Origin: Bacteroidota bacterium | GTDB taxonomy: Bacteria > Bacteroidota > Bacteroidia > Bacteroidales > UBA4417 | Assembly: GCA_013376995.1 (NCBI GenBank) | Contig: JACAAZ010000008.1 | Coordinates: forward strand, 81,305 to 145,304 | Direction: 5' to 3' | DNA: 64,000 nucleotides | Shown: piece after piece, positions 32,887 to 49,857 of the stretch | Position numbering within the stretch: position 1 is the first letter of the stretch | Layout of the letters: every line of letters begins with the position of its first letter | The notes under the pieces: generated by a model | Database searches by the model: none | The model's input: the letters and a program-made list of their open reading frames with translations, nothing else | Told to the model about the DNA's origin: nothing | Program-made: the position numbers and the translations under genes

Positions 32887-33561
32887 CTAAACCAAACCGG
32901 AAGTGCTTGCAATCCTGATAGCCTGGGCCTTGGAACTCACATGCAGCTTGGAATAAATATTTGCAATATGCTTCCGGACAGTATGTGTACTAAGAAATAG
33001 CTTTTCGGCAGTGCTCCTGTAATCACAGCCTTCAACCAACAGTTTGAGCACTTCCATTTCCCTGTCAGATAATTCATATAACGAACTGTTTACATCAGCC
33101 TCCTGCATAACGCCTGGCAATGAAGCTTTCATCAGCATATCCATAGCTTTGCGGGCAATATGCGGACTCATTGGAGCACCACCTATTTCTACCAATTGTT
33201 TGATAAAATCAATGATCACTGAAATTTTTTCATCTTTCAGTAAATACCCGTTTGCACCAGCCTTTATAGCTTCAAATATCTTATCATCATCGTCAAAAAC
33301 GGTAAGCATTAAAAATTTCACTTCCGGGTAAAGGGCATGGGCGTGTTGCACGGCTTTTATTCCATCCATCAGGGGCATTTCAATATCCATCAGTACCACT
33401 TCGGGGAGTTTATTACGTGGTAAAGCTTTCATTTGCTCAAGGAAATCCCGCCCGTTCTGGGCCGTAAAAATCACCTCCAGCTCACTGAAATAATCTAGCT
33501 GCTCGCATAGCGAGATCCGGTTCTGGGATTTATCATCGACGATGGCTAAAGAGGTCTTCAT
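32887..33561 (-). CDS. NarL/LuxR-type response regulator 1
   Basis: A 224-residue regulator: receiver domain (about 4-125) with the phosphoacceptor Asp59 in VVLMDIEMPLMDG, a TVFDDDDKIFEAIKAGANG segment and Lys in LLKDE. A LuxR-type HTH (about 158-220) follows, LSDREMEVLKLLVEGCDYRS to HTVRKHIANIYSKLHVSSKA. The receiver closely resembles regulator 2 at 47006, including the VFEDDDKIF motif. It lies 52 bases after the kinase gene in the same operon and ends at a hairpin terminator. Confidence 0.92.
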   Translation of the reverse strand: MKTSLAIVDDKSQNRISLCEQLDYFSELEVIFTAQNGRDFLEQMKALPRNKLPEVVLMDIEMPLMDGIKAVQHAHALYPEVKFLMLTVFDDDDKIFEAIKAGANGYLLKDEKISVIIDFIKQLVEIGGAPMSPHIARKAMDMLMKASLPGVMQEADVNSSLYELSDREMEVLKLLVEGCDYRSTAEKLFLSTHTVRKHIANIYSKLHVSSKAQAIRIASTSGLV

Positions 33562-33613
33562 AAGGGGCGGAAAACTAATAGATCATTCCAGGGTTTGCAA
33601 TAACGCATTTGTA

Positions 33614-35539
33614 TTATTTCAGTTTTGAAAGGGTCACAGTGGTGCCTTTATTAATTTGGCTGTTAATATCCAGGATGGCAGAAATTTGACTTGCCCTTTC
33701 CCGCATATTATCAATCCCGTAATGACCTGGAAAGGTCTCACTTACATCAAATCCTTTTCCCTCATCAGCCAGTGTAATGTTGTATTGAAACTTGCTGTTT
33801 GTATCGATTGAGAGAATGATCTTACCTGTATCCGAATATTTCAGTGCATTGTTGATGGCTTCCTGGAAAATGCGGTAAATATTGAGCGCCTCAATAGATG
33901 ACAGCACCGGCTTATCAGTGATCTGATCCCTGATTTCCATTTTCAAATTTGTACTGTGAGCCAACTGATGTTGAGCATACAATTTCAACTTATCTGCCAG
34001 TTCATCAAAATGAATAATCTCCTTTCTTGAAGCCCAAATGGTCTCCCTGAGATCGGCAATTGTACTTTTGGCGGTTTCATTTATTTTGTGCAAACGGTTT
34101 AATTTGTCATTCTCCGTCAATTTAACCGGTGCATTCAGGATAAAATCCATGTTGCTTCTTATATAACTCAGTTGTCCGCCCAGGTTATCATGCAATTCAG
34201 CAGCTATACGTTTTCTTTCACCTTCTTTTGCCGTTGTTACAGCTATATCGCTGGTACGCTTATTCTCTTCGTGAATCAATCGCAATTGGAGTTGTTGCTT
34301 TTTCCTGTTTTGACGAAAAAGAATGAATGAGAAAATACTCACGACAAACAAAAGAATAACTGATCCATAAAAAAAGTAGCTTTCACGGGAGAGTTCATAA
34401 TTCTGCTGGATGATCTTATTCTTTTGCTTTTGAAAATCGTATTTTGCCTGCAATTCTGCCAGTTCTTCAGCCGAATTTTTCTTGTACAATGAATCCTTTA
34501 ATGAAATAATCTTTAATAAAGTTTCCTCGTACATCATACTATTCCCGGCAACCTTATAATTATCCGCCAAAGCCATATTGAGTAAAATCAATTTTGAATC
34601 CAGCCTATTTTTTTCAGCTATAGCAATACCTTCCCTGCAGACTTTAATTCCCTTCTCGGACTGTTTGTTTTGAGCATAATAATTCCCAAGTTCCATCATA
34701 TCGGATACTATATAAAACGGGTCGCCGATCAGTTTCCGGATATTCACAGCTTCTGCCAGCGGAGCTTCAGCTTTGTCAACTCTTTTCTTATCAATAAAAA
34801 TACTTGCCTCTACAGCCAGGGCATTAGCCAGTGTTTGAAGGTCCTGATTTCCCCGGCTTAGAGTGATGGCTTTTTTAATATAAAATTCTGCTGAATCCCT
34901 TTTATCCAGGTTATTATATATAGCGGCCATATTGATATACGTTATACTCTCCGTGTATGGCGAGTTGTCGGCTCCTTTCTTTAATGCATCGTAAAAACAT
35001 CTTAATGCTTCCGAATTTTGCCCCATCTCCATCTTTACCCAGCCAATATTCGTCAATGCCGATTGCTCTGTTAGTATATCACCAATTGCTTCAGCCCGGG
35101 TAAGCAAGGAAAAAAACGGAGCCAGTGCCTCTTTGTATTTACTCTTCTTGATTAATACCTGTCCTTTTAGCAAAGAGAACCGGATATATGGCTTACTGTT
35201 TTTATCATTATAGTGCAGCTTCTCCAAAAAATTATTGCATACCAGAAGCGCAGAGTCATTCAAACCTTTTTTAATCAGATAATTAGTTAAGTATGATTCT
35301 GCCAAAGCCTCTGAATTAAAATCTTTTTTCTGCTTTGCAAGCTGCTTCGCAGAAGAGGCATATTGCAGCAAATTCTCCATATTCATCGATTGCCTTTGAT
35401 CACAGAGGGCGAATGCGATTTTCAATCTTTTATCCGAATCGGTTGTAAGGGCATAAGCATGCTTCAGGCTGTCAACTCTTGCTGTTTGGGCAATGCCCAG
35501 CATAGGTAAGACAAACAAAAGAATCATCAACCGATGCAT
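33614..35539 (-). CDS. Tetratricopeptide sensor histidine kinase 1
   Basis: A 641-residue kinase: signal peptide (1-18), periplasmic TPR domain (about 25-355), coiled coil (355-385), one transmembrane helix (about 388-408), and a dimerisation/phosphoacceptor helix of the HisKA_3 type with His450 in IAAELHDNLGGQLSYIRS. The HATPase domain follows, with FQEAINNALKYS (N box) and DEGKGFD (G1 box). This is the standard Bacteroidota partner of NarL-type regulators. It is divergent from the T9SS gene at 35809; the ligand is unknown. Same length as kinase 2. Confidence 0.92.
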   Translation of the reverse strand: MHRLMILLFVLPMLGIAQTARVDSLKHAYALTTDSDKRLKIAFALCDQRQSMNMENLLQYASSAKQLAKQKKDFNSEALAESYLTNYLIKKGLNDSALLVCNNFLEKLHYNDKNSKPYIRFSLLKGQVLIKKSKYKEALAPFFSLLTRAEAIGDILTEQSALTNIGWVKMEMGQNSEALRCFYDALKKGADNSPYTESITYINMAAIYNNLDKRDSAEFYIKKAITLSRGNQDLQTLANALAVEASIFIDKKRVDKAEAPLAEAVNIRKLIGDPFYIVSDMMELGNYYAQNKQSEKGIKVCREGIAIAEKNRLDSKLILLNMALADNYKVAGNSMMYEETLLKIISLKDSLYKKNSAEELAELQAKYDFQKQKNKIIQQNYELSRESYFFYGSVILLFVVSIFSFILFRQNRKKQQLQLRLIHEENKRTSDIAVTTAKEGERKRIAAELHDNLGGQLSYIRSNMDFILNAPVKLTENDKLNRLHKINETAKSTIADLRETIWASRKEIIHFDELADKLKLYAQHQLAHSTNLKMEIRDQITDKPVLSSIEALNIYRIFQEAINNALKYSDTGKIILSIDTNSKFQYNITLADEGKGFDVSETFPGHYGIDNMRERASQISAILDINSQINKGTTVTLSKLK

Positions 35540-35808
35540 GTTTCAGGGTTTGATATTGTGGATACGTAGTATAAAAATACTACAAATGAGTTATTGCCCT
35601 GTTGACCAGGTACCGGTAATTTTATTCTGTTAGCAAAGAGCGATAACTATCTGTGGATAAAAGGAATAGATCCAGGCTTGTTAAATATGTATTCTTTAGC
35701 TTGCTAATAGCGGGTCTCAGAAAGAAATTCTATTCAAAAAGCAAATCAAACGTTATTAATCAGTACTGATAAAAAATTGCACATTAATTAATTCTAATAC
35801 AAGTTATC
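35540..35808. other. Divergent intergenic region between kinase 1 and a T9SS cargo gene
   Basis: 269 bases that must hold promoters in both directions. At 35646-35661 it has ACTATC-TGTG-GATAAA, a degenerate version of the ACTATC...GATAGT palindrome found at 46938 and 48473. There is no perfect TAnnTTTG at the matching distance. Otherwise nothing is recognised. Confidence 0.4.
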
Positions 35809-44526: not shown

Positions 44527-44983
44527 GCCTGTTTAAATAACTAAAGTCTGATTGAAACTTCATGCTAGCTTAAATCCAGGATTCTCCTGATAACAAAGCT
44601 TTAAATAATAAGTGCTAATAATCTTAGATCTAAATTAATAGCGCTTATTGTTTGAATTGAACATCCGCAATTGGGGGATAAACGCCAATGCTTTACCAAC
44701 CGGCAGAAAAATTTAAGATCCAAATAAGCCATAGGCGCGCCTGATCAGTAAAAAATCAAATTATTAACGATTGAATATTATATCCCTCAAATACACATAT
44801 TCATAAATATACCTATCTTCATAAATTGTTTTTTGAATAGTGCGTATGCTGTTACGTTCATTTTTCGATCCGCCTAATTTGCAAGACTCTAGGCCCGGGA
44901 ATAACTGCGTGAATGAAAAAATCGCTACGATTTTCGCTAAGATGAGCGACAAATGATTATTGCAATTGATTAATAATCAGACA
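44527..44983. other. Intergenic region upstream of kinase 2
   Basis: AT-rich DNA, about 460 bases, with no gene I can support. It should hold the promoter of kinase 2, but I see no full TAnnTTTG near 44984. The 62-codon minus-strand frame at 44764-44952 has no coding signature. Confidence 0.45.
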
Positions 44984-46909
44984 ATGAAAAATGTTCTTCT
45001 TTCCAGAGTTCTTTTTTGCACAACCCTGGCTTCCCTAATGGTTTGCAATGTTTCGATGGCTCAGCGGAATAGGATTGACTCCTTGCAGACATTGCTCATA
45101 AGGGACAAAGAGGATACTATAAAAATTATCCATCTCAATCTACTTGCATGGGAGTATAAATCGATAAATCCAGACACCTCTATATCGCTCAGCCTGAATG
45201 CATTAAGCCTGAATAAAAATATAAAATGGAAAAGAGGATTTGCAAAGTTATACACGAATTTAGGGAACTATAAAATGCTCAAAGGAGAGTTGAATGCAGC
45301 TCTTGAATATGAGTTCACCGGACTTAGCCTGTGGGAAGAACTAAAAGATAACAAAGGTAAAAACAGGGCATTTGAAAATATTGCCCGAACTTATTTCAGC
45401 CTTGGCGATTATTCCAGGGCGCTTGAATATTTTATTAAAACTCAGAAGATAGTTGAGAAGGTAGGAACTCAGAATGAGTTGGCAAGTTGCTTATGTAACA
45501 TCGGCAGTGTTTATTTAAGTTCAAAAGATTATCAAAGGTCCCTGGACTATTATTTTAAGGCATTGAAAATTGCTGAAGGCAGCAGATACGTTGAAGTCCA
45601 GGCAAACTGCCTCGGCAACATCGGAGCTGTCTATTCAGAAATGGGAAATAATGCCAAAGCACTTGATTATCATTTCAGAGCCTTGAAAATTACTGAAGAA
45701 AATAGGATCATAAGTGCTCAAGCAGATAACCTGTGCAATATCGGAAATGCCTATTACTATCTGAATAAATATACGGAATCAGAAACCTACTTCTTAAAAG
45801 CGTTAAAGATATATGAAGCCTTAGGGCTTGATGTTGGAATTGCCAATGATCTTGCAAACATTGGCAAACTCTATGTTGCGACAGGAAAATTCTCAAAAGC
45901 GGAGGCAGCGCTAAAAAAGGCAATTGCAATTGAAAACAGCTCTGGTGCTTTGAAGGAATTAAGAGAAGCCGAGGAAATGCTTTCTGTTCTTTATGATACT
46001 ACTGGTAGATATAAACTTGCACTCATTCACTTTAAAAAGGCATCTATACTCAAAGATAGCCTGTTTAGTGCTGAAAGAACGAAAGAACTTACCCGGCAAG
46101 CAATGAATTATGAGTTTGATAAAAAAGAGTCGCTAACAAAAGCCGAACAGCAGAAAAAGGAAGCCCTGGCATTGAAAGAATTTCAAAAGGAGAAACTATT
46201 GAACTATTTTTCCTTTGGAGGAATCGGCCTCATCCTCTTACTGTTTTTCTTTATTTACAGGAATTACCGGGTGCGACAAGAATTGCGCCTGCTTGATATT
46301 CGGAACAGGATTGCACGCGATCTGCATGATGACATAGGTTCCACGCTAAACAGCATTTCGATCTACAGTGAAATCGCGAAGCTCAAAAACACAGAGGAAT
46401 CGCAACGCAACAAATTCCTTGAAACTATTGGCAATTCATCACGGTATATGATTGAACAAATGAATGACATCGTTTGGGCTGTAAATCCGGTCAACGATAA
46501 GTTTGAGAATATTCTGTTCCGAATGAGAAGTTATGTAAGCGAATTAACGGAAGGCGCCAATGTTACTCTGAGCATGCATATGGATGAAAAATGTAAAAGC
46601 ATTTCGCTCAATATGAACAAGCGTAAAAACTTTTACCTGGTGTTTAAAGAAGCTGTGAACAACGCAGTCAAATATTCTGAAGCATCTGAAGTTAATGTTA
46701 GTGTCAACTTGAATGACAATTTCCTGTACCTGAAAGTAGCAGATAACGGTTTGGGATTTGAAGTTGAAAGGGAACTTGAAAATGTTGACAACCAGGGCGG
46801 GAACGGGTTAAAAAATATGAAGGCAAGGGCTGAAGAAATCAAAGCCGTATTCAATATCCTGTCAGTCCCGGGCAAAGGCACGAGTGTTGAATTAAAAATG
46901 AAGATTTAA
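44984..46909 (+). CDS. Tetratricopeptide sensor histidine kinase 2
   Basis: I take the ATG at 44984 (MKNVLLSRVLFCTT, 641 residues) over a TTG eight codons upstream, because it gives a signal peptide ending SMAQ. Domains: periplasmic TPRs (about 45-360) with clear repeats such as CLCNIGSVYLSSKDYQRSLD, coiled coil (365-405), transmembrane helix (about 408-426), and HisKA_3 with His448 in RIARDLHDDIGSTLNSISIY. The HATPase domain follows, with FKEAVNNAVKYS, DNGLGFEVE and GNGLKNMKARAEE. The partner regulator is 96 bases downstream and has its own candidate promoter in the gap. Confidence 0.92.
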   Translation: MKNVLLSRVLFCTTLASLMVCNVSMAQRNRIDSLQTLLIRDKEDTIKIIHLNLLAWEYKSINPDTSISLSLNALSLNKNIKWKRGFAKLYTNLGNYKMLKGELNAALEYEFTGLSLWEELKDNKGKNRAFENIARTYFSLGDYSRALEYFIKTQKIVEKVGTQNELASCLCNIGSVYLSSKDYQRSLDYYFKALKIAEGSRYVEVQANCLGNIGAVYSEMGNNAKALDYHFRALKITEENRIISAQADNLCNIGNAYYYLNKYTESETYFLKALKIYEALGLDVGIANDLANIGKLYVATGKFSKAEAALKKAIAIENSSGALKELREAEEMLSVLYDTTGRYKLALIHFKKASILKDSLFSAERTKELTRQAMNYEFDKKESLTKAEQQKKEALALKEFQKEKLLNYFSFGGIGLILLLFFFIYRNYRVRQELRLLDIRNRIARDLHDDIGSTLNSISIYSEIAKLKNTEESQRNKFLETIGNSSRYMIEQMNDIVWAVNPVNDKFENILFRMRSYVSELTEGANVTLSMHMDEKCKSISLNMNKRKNFYLVFKEAVNNAVKYSEASEVNVSVNLNDNFLYLKVADNGLGFEVERELENVDNQGGNGLKNMKARAEEIKAVFNILSVPGKGTSVELKMKI

Positions 46910-46936: not shown

Positions 46937-46983
46937 TACTATCCGGAGGGATAGTACAAAAACAAATGTCAACTTTACTTTTG
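46937..46983 (+). promoter_or_regulatory. Palindrome plus -7 box upstream of response regulator 2
   Basis: TACTATCC-GGAG-GGATAGTA (46937-46956) is a perfect eight-base inverted repeat. Twenty bases after the 18-base core comes TACTTTTG (46976-46983), a full TAnnTTTG match, 22 bases before the ATG at 47006. The palindrome centre falls about 30 bases before the -7 box, roughly where an activator overlapping the -33 region would bind. A sister site is at 48473-48519. Confidence 0.6.
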
Positions 46984-47005
46984 TATATCAATCAATTTTA
47001 TCAGG

Positions 47006-47641
47006 ATGCCAATAAGAGTCGTTGTTTTTGAAGATAACCACATGTTGCGTGAAGGCCTCTATCACCTGATCCACGCCAGTGAAAACTTTTTATGCACAGG
47101 TGCATATCCTGATTGCAGCGACTTATTGTTCAAGATCAGGCAGTCAGAACCTGATATTATCCTAATGGACATTGAAATGCCCGGCATGTCGGGATTGGAG
47201 GCTTTGAAAATAATCAGGCAGAATTTCCCGGGAATTAAGGTTATCATGCAAACGGTATTTGAGGATGATGATAAGATATTTGATGCAGTGATCAACGGTG
47301 CCGTCGGTTATCTTATCAAAAAAACAAAGCCGGCCCGCCTCCTGGAAGCTATTGAGGAAGTATATAATGGCGGTGCTACCATGACACCCGCTATTGCCCA
47401 AAAAGCGCTTGAACTCTTTAGGTCCAATGTATCGAAAAAACCGGGAAATGAATTTCCTAAATTAAACGAACGTCAAGGGGAAATCCTGGAGTTGATCGTC
47501 AGTGGCCTGAATTTCCAGGCAATAGGAGAAAAATTATTTATAACAAAAGCAACAGTCCGCTATCATGTAAAGAATATTTACGACCTGCTGGATGTCAATT
47601 CAAAATCAGCATTAGTAGCTAAAGCATTGAATAAAAAATAA
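47006..47641 (+). CDS. NarL/LuxR-type response regulator 2
   Basis: A 211-residue regulator: receiver domain (about 3-120) with phosphoacceptor Asp55 in IILMDIEMPGMSG, QTVFEDDDKIFDAVINGAVG and Lys in LIKKTK. A LuxR-type HTH (about 147-208) follows, LNERQGEILELIVSGLNFQA to KATVRYHVKNIYDLLDVNSK. Paralogous to regulator 1. The palindrome just upstream is a candidate autoregulatory site. It ends before a strong bidirectional terminator at 47661-47694. Confidence 0.93.
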   Translation: MPIRVVVFEDNHMLREGLYHLIHASENFLCTGAYPDCSDLLFKIRQSEPDIILMDIEMPGMSGLEALKIIRQNFPGIKVIMQTVFEDDDKIFDAVINGAVGYLIKKTKPARLLEAIEEVYNGGATMTPAIAQKALELFRSNVSKKPGNEFPKLNERQGEILELIVSGLNFQAIGEKLFITKATVRYHVKNIYDLLDVNSKSALVAKALNKK

Positions 47642-47660
47642 TGTTTCCCGGGATAAATGA

Positions 47661-47694
47661 AAAAGAGCCGCCCGAACTTCCAGACGGCTCTTTT
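47661..47694. terminator. Bidirectional Rho-independent terminator
   Basis: A perfect ten-base stem, AAAAGAGCCG / CGGCTCTTTT, encloses a 14-base loop. A-rich sequence on the left and T-rich on the right make it work for response regulator 2 (plus) and the lipoprotein gene (minus), which converge here. Confidence 0.92.
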
Positions 47695-47713
47695 CCTGTT
47701 AAACAACGAAATC

Positions 47714-48349
47714 CTATTGCCTGATAAAAATCTCATTCTCACTGAAACCGTCCCTCCGTATGAATTTCCTGAACTGCTTTTTGGTCACTGTAAATTTATG
47801 AGGTGGAACTGTGTCTTTTGAGGTTTCGGTGATCTCCTGCAACTTCTCGAGGTCAAACTTTGATGAAATGCTGCCGATTGTGATCTGCCCCCTGGATATA
47901 CTGATCTTCTTTACTTCCCAGCTTTCATCATTCATCCTTTTGTTCAGGAAATAATATCCTTTGAACTTCCTTAGCACATTGTCCTTGTTTAGTTGAAAAA
48001 CCGTGTCTGTCGCATGGATATGATTCACCAGAGTATCCCCAACCCGAATTACAATAGTTCTTTCATGACTTTTCAGATCCACCAGGGTATCGCCTGATAG
48101 CCTCATATTGCTATCGAGATCGTTAATATGCATCTTATTATCAAAATCATAAGTCCTCACCAATAAATTATCGCTGATCGTCAGGAGTGAGTTGTCCGCC
48201 AGGCTATAATACTTACCGGCCAACCGATCCGGTATTTTTGCCAGGTTGCCGGTATCCGGGGGTTGCGGTTCGGTAAAAGTCACTGGCGATTCACATGCGA
48301 TCATACCTGCCAGAAAAATATAAGCTAATAACACATTCAGTTTTTTCAT
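47714..48349 (-). CDS. Lipoprotein of unknown family
   Basis: A 211-residue lipoprotein with lipobox GMIAC (Cys19). The mature protein begins ESPVTFTEPQPPDTGN and continues with beta-strand-like sequence: LAGKYYSLADNSLLTISDNL, then DSNMRLSGDTLVDLKSHERT. I recognise no named domain. It converges on response regulator 2 and is divergent from the GH5-like gene; the 220-base divergent spacer holds the palindrome at 48473. Inner-leaflet retention signals were not assessed. Confidence 0.7.
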   Translation of the reverse strand: MKKLNVLLAYIFLAGMIACESPVTFTEPQPPDTGNLAKIPDRLAGKYYSLADNSLLTISDNLLVRTYDFDNKMHINDLDSNMRLSGDTLVDLKSHERTIVIRVGDTLVNHIHATDTVFQLNKDNVLRKFKGYYFLNKRMNDESWEVKKISISRGQITIGSISSKFDLEKLQEITETSKDTVPPHKFTVTKKQFRKFIRRDGFSENEIFIRQ

Positions 48350-48472
48350 CGCCTTCTGTTTTAAATGATTATTATTCTGATTCTTATACTTCCAATTTCA
48401 ACAAAACCCAGTTTGCTTTAGCAGAGCACATTTGTTTATCGTACAAATGTATCAAGGATGCTCAATGTAAAA

Positions 48473-48519
48473 ACTATCCCCGGAGATAGTTTCCGGGGAA
48501 CTGCCCTGGCCTAATTTTG
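48473..48519 (+). promoter_or_regulatory. Palindrome plus -7 box upstream of the GH5-like gene
   Basis: ACTATC-CCCGGA-GATAGT (48473-48490) matches the 46938-46955 palindrome at 14 of 18 positions. Twenty-one bases later comes TAATTTTG (48512-48519), a full TAnnTTTG match, 51 bases before the ATG at 48571. A second inverted repeat, TCCCCGGA-N7-TCCGGGGA (48477-48499), overlaps it. Confidence 0.6.
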
Positions 48520-48570: not shown

Positions 48571-49857
48571 ATGAATAGAATTAGCGGTTTAAAAATTATA
48601 ATCATGCTCATTATAGGCTCATGGATTCAATCTCATGCAAGAGCGCAAAACGAGACTATTATGGCTAATGGCAGTCATATAATAGGAACTTGCGGGGATA
48701 CGATTATATTGCGAGGAGTTAATTACGCAGCTTACAATTGGGGGTATGATCCATCTGACCTTCGGATTTCTGAAATAGCAGCATCTGGTGCCAACAGTGT
48801 TCGATTACCCTGGTATACTTCAAGCGCAAGTGGAGGCGGGTTTGTATATGATGACATTTCCTATTTAAATGCAGCTATTAACCAGTGCGTAGTGAATAAA
48901 ATGATCCCGATCATTGAATTACACGACCTTACAGGTGATCCTGATTTTAATAAAATTATTCAACTGAGTAATTGGTACCTGCGGCAGGATGTCAACTCAA
49001 TGATCTCTAATTATAAACACAGCCTGATTATCAATGTAGCGAATGAAGCCGGGAGCGTGATGAATTCTCAGCAGTTGGCTGATTTTATGAATACATACCA
49101 GATCGTTGTAACCAACCTGCGAAACGGGGGCATCTCAGTCCCATTGATGATTGATGCCCCGAATTTCGGGACTGATATCGATCTCCTGGCCTCCATCGCG
49201 CCTGCTCTCCAGGCTGAAGATCCGCTTCATAACCTTATTTTTAGCGCTCACGCATATTGGTATTATTATGCCAGTAATGATTCCACCATTTTCAGGAACA
49301 AGATCACCAATGCTATGTCACAGGGTGTGCCTTTTGTTTTAGGTGAGATTTGCAACCTCCAGTACGGCACTTCCCCTTGTGAATTAACTGTAAACTACAA
49401 GCCCCTGTTGGGAATATGCCAGCAGCTGAATGTCAGCTGGCTTGCCTGGGTTTGGGATCATGATGCATGTTCTGAAAGCCAGGTAAGTACTAATGGGAAT
49501 TTCAACAGCTTATCCACTTATGGAAACACAATCGTGAACAATCCTGATTTTGGTTTGTTCCAACACTCAACTATAGCTTACTATCTCGCAAACAATCAAA
49601 CCTGCAATACAGGTATCCATATAAATCCCGGATTAAAAGAGGTTCCGTTCATCGTTTATGCTTCTGATGGCGGAACCCTCATCAAATCTTTGGTCACCGG
49701 GAATCTTGAAGTAAACGTTTTCGATGAGATTGGGAGGAAAGAGAAAAGTTACCTTCTCGCAGGATTAAGTAATCAGTATCTTGAGTTACCTTCAGGAATT
49801 CATCTTTTCTCAGCGGCATATAAACATAAAATGTATTCACAAAAACTGGTCGAATAA
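48571..49857 (+). CDS. Secreted GH5-like glycoside hydrolase with divergent T9SS tail
   Basis: A 428-residue protein with a signal peptide (1-26, ending RAQ) and a GH5-type TIM barrel (about 30-340). LRGVNYAAYNWGYD, ANSVRLPWY and IELHDLTGD come first. The acid/base Glu159 is in INVANEAG, SAHAYW holds His227 and Tyr229, and the nucleophile Glu259 is in PFVLGEICN. The fold class and catalytic pair fit beta-mannanase/endoglucanase-type enzymes. The last ~70 residues (NVFDEIGRKEKSYLL, ending YKHKMYSQKLVE) look like a T9SS sorting domain lacking the YPNP start. It probably cleaves a beta-1,4 polysaccharide outside the cell. Its promoter carries the palindrome shared with response regulator 2. Confidence 0.83.
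   Translation: MNRISGLKIIIMLIIGSWIQSHARAQNETIMANGSHIIGTCGDTIILRGVNYAAYNWGYDPSDLRISEIAASGANSVRLPWYTSSASGGGFVYDDISYLNAAINQCVVNKMIPIIELHDLTGDPDFNKIIQLSNWYLRQDVNSMISNYKHSLIINVANEAGSVMNSQQLADFMNTYQIVVTNLRNGGISVPLMIDAPNFGTDIDLLASIAPALQAEDPLHNLIFSAHAYWYYYASNDSTIFRNKITNAMSQGVPFVLGEICNLQYGTSPCELTVNYKPLLGICQQLNVSWLAWVWDHDACSESQVSTNGNFNSLSTYGNTIVNNPDFGLFQHSTIAYYLANNQTCNTGIHINPGLKEVPFIVYASDGGTLIKSLVTGNLEVNVFDEIGRKEKSYLLAGLSNQYLELPSGIHLFSAAYKHKMYSQKLVE

What the first reader, a model, noticed from the sequence alone, without database searches (positions are those of the whole stretch)
46937..48519. Shared 18-bp palindrome at the same distance from perfect -7 boxes at two promoters
Seen: ACTATCCGGAGGGATAGT (46938-46955) and ACTATCCCCGGAGATAGT (48473-48490) agree at 14 of 18 positions, and both are inverted repeats. 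They are followed after 20 and 21 bases by TACTTTTG and TAATTTTG, each a full match to the Bacteroidota -7 consensus TAnnTTTG. The centres lie about 30 bases before the -7 box in both cases. Established: NarL/LuxR-type regulators bind inverted repeats and activate from near -40. Inference: response regulator 2 controls its own gene and the secreted GH5-like glycosidase through this site, linking the TPR kinase to polysaccharide breakdown. A degenerate copy lies at 35646-35661 upstream of the surface-protein run.
Basis: partly seen in the sequence, partly recalled or inferred. Interest (0 to 1): 0.75.

Follow-up and report, generated by a model that had tools for sequence, protein, structure and literature searches.

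The report
Self-regulating two-component switch with local operators
A bacterial response regulator very probably recognises an 18-base palindrome placed in front of its own gene and midway between two oppositely directed neighbouring genes, so one signal would switch on a small local set of genes; relatives of the regulator in other bacteria carry a matching palindrome at the same spot.

Summary
ACTATC-N6-GATAGT occurs at exactly two places in the 5.05-Mb genome, both in this window.

Comparison ties the palindrome to this NarL/LuxR-type regulator. In a tree of 122 regulators the 10 with helix (V/I)RYHVKNIY form one clade (100/99). Of the 9 outside the window, 8 carry CTAY-N8-RTAG within about 300 bp upstream, against 0 of 112 others. 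Of all 22 such palindromes in the window and nine clade loci, 16 have TTTG (12) or TTTA (4) at one exact distance; of 26 in 112 control loci, none. The window and its closest relative use ACTATC; the rest mostly ACTAC.

Best reading: an autoregulated two-component system whose regulator binds near -42 and activates itself, a GH5 enzyme and a lipoprotein. The 'degenerate copy' at 35646-35661 is not supported. No binding or transcription was measured. The kind is known; the locked geometry, clade-specific operator and exchanged sensor and targets make it a good test case.

The parts
44960..46909 (+). TPR-type sensor histidine kinase (HK2): TPR repeats, HisKA_3, HATPase_c; listed from a TTG, the true start may be a later ATG
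   Evidence: ORF; Pfam TPR_12 3.8e-37, HisKA_3 1.8e-09, HATPase_c 8.5e-10
46938..46955 (+). palindrome 1 (operator of the regulator's own promoter), centre -41.5 if TAnnTTTG spans -12 to -5
   Evidence: -12 to -5 from PMC9723704, passage seen
46976..46983 (+). -7 box TACTTTTG of promoter P1 (rr2)
47006..47641 (+). response regulator 2 (receiver + GerE/LuxR helix-turn-helix), recognition helix TKATVRYHVKNIY
   Evidence: Response_reg 5.8e-23, GerE 1.4e-11; alignment
47714..48349 (-). 211-aa lipoprotein-like gene (lipobox by eye), divergent from the GH5 gene; third probable target
   Evidence: ORF; no Pfam family; homologues in 5 same-genus genomes at 40-49%, a weak one in a sixth
48444..48451 (-). 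-7 box TACATTTG of promoter P3 (lipoprotein), 21 bp from palindrome 2
48473..48490 (.). palindrome 2, shared operator of the divergent promoters P2 and P3, centre -42.5 for both
48512..48519 (+). -7 box TAATTTTG of promoter P2 (GH5)
48571..49857 (+). GH5 (cellulase family) enzyme, secreted by the look of its N-terminus (no signal-peptide program run)
   Evidence: ORF; PF00150 3.5e-21

Best explanation
The two palindromes are operators of the NarL/LuxR-type response regulator encoded between them (47006-47641). When the neighbouring TPR kinase phosphorylates it, the regulator binds as a dimer to ACTAT-N8-ATAGT centred at about -42. This position overlaps the place where a -33 element would stand, and the regulator recruits RNA polymerase in the manner of a class II activator. 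It thereby raises its own transcription (palindrome 1) and, from the single palindrome 2, drives the GH5 gene and the divergent lipoprotein-like gene together. Shown by computation: the sites, their uniqueness in the genome, the fixed spacing, the third promoter, and the association of the palindrome with one regulator clade. Inferred: binding, phosphorylation dependence, activation rather than repression, and the signal.
For: Exact site at only 2 places in 5.05 Mb, both here. Three promoters with TANNTTTG at 20-21 bp here and none in the other 392 genomes of the order searched. The closest regulator (82% identical, L051) has ACTATCTCCAGGGATAGT 20 bp before TACTTTTG in front of its gene and a one-mismatch copy 21 bp before TATTTTTG behind it. 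Palindrome upstream in 8 of 9 clade members outside the window and 0 of 112 other regulators. Complete count: of 22 CTAY-N8-RTAG places in the window and nine clade loci, 18 lie outside ORFs; 12 of these have TTTG and 4 more TTTA at a box offset of exactly 20 or 21 bp. The 4 places inside ORFs have neither. In 112 control loci, 0 of 26 places (9 outside ORFs) have either. In 10 genomes with such a regulator, 11 of 14 matches lie at its own locus. The lipoprotein's homologues in 5 same-genus genomes lack the palindrome in the fetched flanks, and the best regulator match among the 15 same-genus genomes is 43% identical. The helix aligns with that of NarL.
Against: No experiment. Pattern counts alone do not exceed the reversed-pattern control: 189 against 273 places, 14 against 29, 10 against 14; only (5 against 1; 3 against 0) do they. 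The argument rests on placement. L052 has only a degenerate upstream palindrome, picked out by eye. Two of the 18 places outside ORFs have no box: L052 1500 and L053 1, the latter at a contig edge. Clade members are related, so the Fisher value (1e-11) overstates the evidence. The missing -33 element is weak evidence: the operator itself fills that place, and in F. johnsoniae no -33 motif could be identified (PMC7366714, passage). Several same-genus genomes are incomplete (64-74% for three). Terminator-like hairpins lie at 48477-48499 (-) and 48493-48509 (+). Repression from the same position cannot be excluded.
Confidence: 0.83

Rival explanations
1. The regulator binds the palindromes but represses: bound dimers at -42 block polymerase, and the kinase signal relieves or strengthens this.
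For: The operator overlaps the -33 position, where a repressor could also act; autorepression is common in regulators (general knowledge). The lack of a -33 motif is not decisive, since F. johnsoniae promoters showed none either (PMC7366714, passage).
Against: Where a box is found its distance is locked at 20 or 21 bp (16 of 18 places outside ORFs), as expected if the regulator touches polymerase; a repressor tolerates more positions (general knowledge).
Confidence: 0.1
2. The palindromes are RNA hairpins or intrinsic terminators (end of the kinase gene, antisense to the GH5 leader) rather than DNA operators.
For: Palindrome 1 begins 29 bp behind the kinase ORF; terminator-like hairpins overlap or adjoin palindrome 2 on both strands (48499-48477 minus, 48493-48509 plus; 2 found, shuffles mean 1.3).
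Against: Palindrome 1 was not called a terminator. Sequence, not only pairing, is conserved and follows the regulator clade (ACTATC or ACTAC). The fixed distance to the -7 box is not expected of a terminator.
Confidence: 0.03
3. Another regulator of the genome, such as the second TPR-kinase/LuxR pair in the window (32887-35539), reads the palindromes.
For: This genome holds three other loci that match regulator 2 at E <= 1e-30 besides its own.
Against: Regulator 1 has helix TVRKHIANIY, not the clade signature. The palindrome is found upstream of clade members and of none of 112 others.
Confidence: 0.03
4. Chance similarity of two promoters.
For: 12 fixed bases in 5 Mb would give about 0.3 sites by chance (own estimate); relaxed counts do not exceed the reversed control.
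Against: The same arrangement recurs at the corresponding places in other genomes and in no control locus.
Confidence: 0.01

Closest known systems
NarL/FixJ (LuxR)-type response regulators; best solved relatives by sequence VraR and NarL
   Same: Receiver plus GerE helix-turn-helix; recognition helix aligns (TVRYHVKN with NarL TVKVHVKH); paired with a HisKA_3 kinase; palindromic operator
   Different: Operator ACTAY-N8-RTAGT before a Bacteroidota-type -7 box; no binding data. The operators of VraR and NarL were not taken from any call, so no comparison of sites is made
Class II activator promoters such as the lux box near -42.5 (recalled; not read here)
   Same: Palindrome centred at -41.5/-42.5, over the place of the upstream promoter element
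   Different: Promoter is of Bacteroidota type; contact with polymerase not shown
Bacteroidota sigma-A promoters (TAnnTTTG at -7, TTTG near -33 in B. fragilis; PMC7366714 and PMC9723704, passages seen)
   Same: Full -7 box at all three window promoters
   Different: No TTTG near -33 at the 19 sites looked at; but the same passage says no -33 motif was identified in F. johnsoniae
Hybrid two-component systems and polysaccharide utilisation loci of Bacteroides (recalled)
   Same: A sensor near a glycoside hydrolase gene; propeller/Y_Y_Y sensors in sister loci L051 and L056
   Different: Separate kinase and LuxR-type regulator; TPR sensor here; I did not look for a SusC/SusD pair

Membership tests
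NarL/LuxR-type response regulator | receiver domain followed by a GerE helix-turn-helix | tested here: met
   PF00072 5.8e-23 and PF00196 1.4e-11
NarL/LuxR-type response regulator | partner kinase with HisKA_3 and HATPase domains | tested here: met
   adjacent gene 44960-46909
NarL/LuxR-type response regulator | binds DNA when phosphorylated | not testable with these tools
   -
Class II-type activated promoter | operator centred near -42 at a fixed distance from the core promoter | tested here: met
   16 of 18 palindromes outside ORFs have TTTG (12) or TTTA (4) at box offset 20 or 21; start site assumed from -12 to -5
Class II-type activated promoter | weak or absent upstream promoter element | tested here: inconclusive
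   TTTG absent near -33 in 19 of 19 and TTG in 18 of 19, but the operator fills that place and no background rate was measured
Class II-type activated promoter | transcription depends on the activator | not testable with these tools
   -
Autoregulated two-component system | operator in front of the regulator's own gene, conserved in close relatives | tested here: met
   8 of 9 clade members outside the window
Global regulon | operator at many promoters across the genome | tested here: not met
   only 2 exact places, all six one-mismatch places in ORFs; the relaxed arrangement adds 4 three-mismatch hits in this genome, against 8 for the control

The most novel reading that the evidence does not exclude
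The regulator and its operator form a portable cassette. A LuxR-type regulator, its self-operator and a second operator behind it stay together while the kinase's sensor part (TPR here, propeller elsewhere) and the target genes behind it (GH5 plus lipoprotein, S74 proteins, small secreted proteins) are exchanged. A few residues at the start of the recognition helix (TKA against mostly SxD/E) set the operator dialect, ACTATC or ACTAC. If true, sensors and outputs could be matched across Bacteroidota by reading the operator alone.
Probability: 0.45. Interest if true: 0.65.

Novelty: new member of a known kind. Interest (0 to 1): 0.52.

Why it matters
Environmental Bacteroidota carry many LuxR-type regulators; my few searches of an open-access library (listings only, the first 15 of 43) turned up no described operator for this type. 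Here a regulator, its operator, its promoters and its targets can be named from sequence, with a fixed geometry (20-21 bp to the -7 box) that could serve as a rule for finding operators of other such regulators. It also gives a directly testable protein-DNA specificity pair (ACTAT and ACTAC readers).

Tried and rejected
The 'degenerate copy' at 35646-35661: rejected because the half-sites are 4 bp apart instead of 6 and no TTTG follows. A genome-wide regulon: rejected. The two further hits (L016, L017) and the six one-mismatch sites lie in ORFs. Same-genus regulators: the best matches are 43% identical; none of their fetched loci has the palindrome upstream of the regulator, and none of the four same-genus genomes drawn has the full arrangement. 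More clade members: 395 genomes of the class, 11 of one family and 396 of another order gave none new at the thresholds set; 394 of another family gave one new, L151, besides repeats of L052 and L054-L057 (L146-L150), which were dropped from the tables. A search for perfect 7-base arms upstream of 72 other regulators (L059-L130) found palindromes in 14, of several kinds. Literature: searches returned 0 papers; nothing relevant in the listings; one search gave no VraR or LiaR site. No structure was predicted.

Corrections made on the way. The first clade table read 15 loci on the wrong strand; repeated with corrected strands, same counts. The 19 sites were chosen by me (one of them, upstream in L052, by eye; four other palindromes in the clade loci, L052 1500, L053 1, L054 6370 and L056 2985, were left out; L161 was left out because it had been found by its spacing). 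I therefore recounted every CTAY-N8-RTAG place without choosing.

Full report
What is there. A third box, TACATTTG, lies on the minus strand at 48451-48444, again 21 bp from palindrome 2. So palindrome 2 sits midway between two divergent promoters, one for the GH5 enzyme (48571-49857, PF00150 3.5e-21) and one for a 211-aa lipoprotein-like gene (47714-48349, minus; no Pfam family). Palindrome 1 serves the response regulator itself (47006-47641: receiver 5.8e-23, GerE 1.4e-11), whose partner kinase upstream has TPR repeats, HisKA_3 and HATPase_c. TAnnTTTG lies at -12 to -5 in a flavobacterial start-site map (PMC9723704, passage seen). With that, the palindromes are centred at -41.5, -42.5 and -42.5.

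Is it more than chance? In the whole genome (5.05 Mb, 43 contigs) ACTATC-N6-GATAGT without mismatch occurs at these 2 places only. The six one-mismatch places lie inside ORFs. With a TANNTTTG box at 19-22 bp, 1 of 393 genomes of the order has a match, this one, with 3 promoters. A looser form (TATC-N6-GATA and box) gives 5 matches in the genome, 3 of them these promoters and 2 in ORFs, control 1. Against the claim: with two mismatches allowed the site is no more frequent than its reversed control (189 places against 273), and the relaxed full arrangements also fall below their controls (14 against 29, 10 against 14). The case therefore rests on where the sites lie.

Comparative test. Relatives of the regulator were fetched from named genomes (80 loci, L051-L130, the best 80 of 506) and from unnamed ones. 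The closest, L051 (82% identity, a MAG filed as uncultured Bacteroidales, CAIKNA010000045.1), has ACTATCTCCAGGGATAGT 20 bp before TACTTTTG in front of its regulator, and ACTGTCTTTTGAGATAGT (one mismatch) 21 bp before TATTTTTG right behind it, in front of a protein with an S74 domain. Of the regulators at 52-60% identity (L052-L058), L053-L058 have an ACTAC-N8-GTAGT palindrome upstream (L053 with GCTAC; L056 further off, at -234), and L052, L053, L054, L056 and L057 have one behind the regulator gene.

In an alignment these regulators share the helix (V/I)RYHVKNIY; none of the other 112 loci has (V/I)RYH. A tree of 122 rows makes the 10 carriers one group (100/99) and the window plus L051 a pair within it (100/100). 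Of 121 loci, window excluded, 8 of 9 carriers have CTAY-N8-RTAG within about 300 bp upstream of the regulator (less at some contig ends), against 0 of 112 non-carriers (Fisher 1e-11, which overstates the evidence because the carriers are related). The ninth carrier, L052, has a degenerate version upstream, seen by eye, and a good copy behind the gene.

Geometry. Every CTAY-N8-RTAG place in the window and the nine clade loci was counted, on either side of the palindrome. There are 22; 4 lie inside ORFs of 90 aa or more and have no box at the right distance. In 112 control loci, 0 of 26 places (9 outside ORFs) have TTTG or TTTA there. An earlier hand-made set of 19 sites, which includes the one-mismatch L051 site and the degenerate L052 site, gave TTTG in 15 and TTTG or TTTA in 19 of 19 (mononucleotide shuffles of the flank: means 0.27 and 0.8, maxima 4 and 6, 5000 rounds), and the full TANNTTTG in 5, all in the window (3) and L051 (2). 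TTTG near -33 is absent in 19 of 19 and TTG in 18 of 19. This is weak evidence, because the operator itself fills that place and F. johnsoniae promoters showed no -33 motif (PMC7366714, passage). The fixed spacing is the better mark of an activator that touches polymerase.

Regulon size. The full arrangement was sought in 10 genomes that hold such a regulator. It gave 14 matches (control 29): 11 at the regulator's own locus, within about 2.5 kb, and 3 elsewhere, all in G1010; 3 of the 10 genomes had none. One of the 3, L161, precedes a protein similar to the S74 protein of L051 (2e-20), beside small proteins of the kind found behind the regulator in L054; the other two look like chance. So the regulon is local, with perhaps one remote member in one genome.

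Exchange of parts. By blastp the window kinase matches the L051 kinase only over the transmitter (219 aa, 64%); the sensor parts gave no match, TPR here and propeller/Y_Y_Y there. The targets also differ: GH5 and lipoprotein here; S74 proteins in L051 and L056 (the L056 match is just under Pfam's cut-off); small secreted-looking proteins in L054 (two related ones, each behind its own palindrome). L055 has a similar small protein without a palindrome found in front of it. The lipoprotein has homologues at 40-49% in 5 of the same-genus genomes (and a weak one in a sixth), with different neighbours and no such palindrome in the fetched flanks of the five. The GH5 has a 46% homologue in the genome of L051, on another contig, and a 34% one in the genome of L052, neither with the palindrome in the fetched flanks.

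How it most likely works. The kinase senses an unknown cue and phosphorylates the regulator. The regulator dimer binds ACTAT-N8-ATAGT at about -42, supplies the upstream contact for polymerase, and activates its own gene and, from one shared operator, the GH5 and lipoprotein genes. Positive feedback would make the response sharp. Binding, phosphorylation, activation and the cue are inferred.

Known or new. Autoregulated LuxR-type two-component systems with palindromic operators near -42 are a known kind (general knowledge; VraR and NarL are the nearest solved relatives by sequence). This is a new member, in a phylum where my searches of an open-access library found no operator for this type (listings only). 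The clade-specific operator and the exchange of sensor and targets are the interesting part.

Noticed in passing
window 35566-35583: Inverted repeat GTAGTATAAAAATACTAC in front of the other TPR kinase/regulator pair (33614-35539, 32887-33561, minus strand), seen by eye; possibly that system's own operator.
   Followed up: no
window 44960-46909 and L051 3-1892: The two kinases match only over the transmitter (64% over 219 aa); TPR sensor in one, propeller/Y_Y_Y sensor in the other: a sensor exchange next to an otherwise conserved regulator.
   Followed up: partly
L105 and L115 upstream of the regulator; L088, L123: Regulators of other clades have palindromes of the type TATCCCC-N6-GGGGATA (L105, L115) or ATCCCC-N6-GGGGAT (L088, L123) in front of their genes; self-operators may be general.
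   Followed up: no
L064 (-60), L107 (-86): TTCACCCAAATGGGTGAA and TCACCTGAACAGGTGA palindromes upstream of the regulator.
   Followed up: no
L167-L171: In same-genus genomes the lipoprotein lies beside a DEAD-box-helicase-like and/or a uracil-DNA-glycosylase-like gene (named by eye), not beside a regulator, so the window copy stands in another place.
   Followed up: partly
window 48477-48499 (minus) and 48493-48509 (plus): Two terminator-like hairpins overlapping or adjoining palindrome 2 (2 found, shuffles mean 1.3); probably coincidence.
   Followed up: no
L062 about 450-575: Run of CTACTCT-like 7-base repeats directly before the regulator gene.
   Followed up: no
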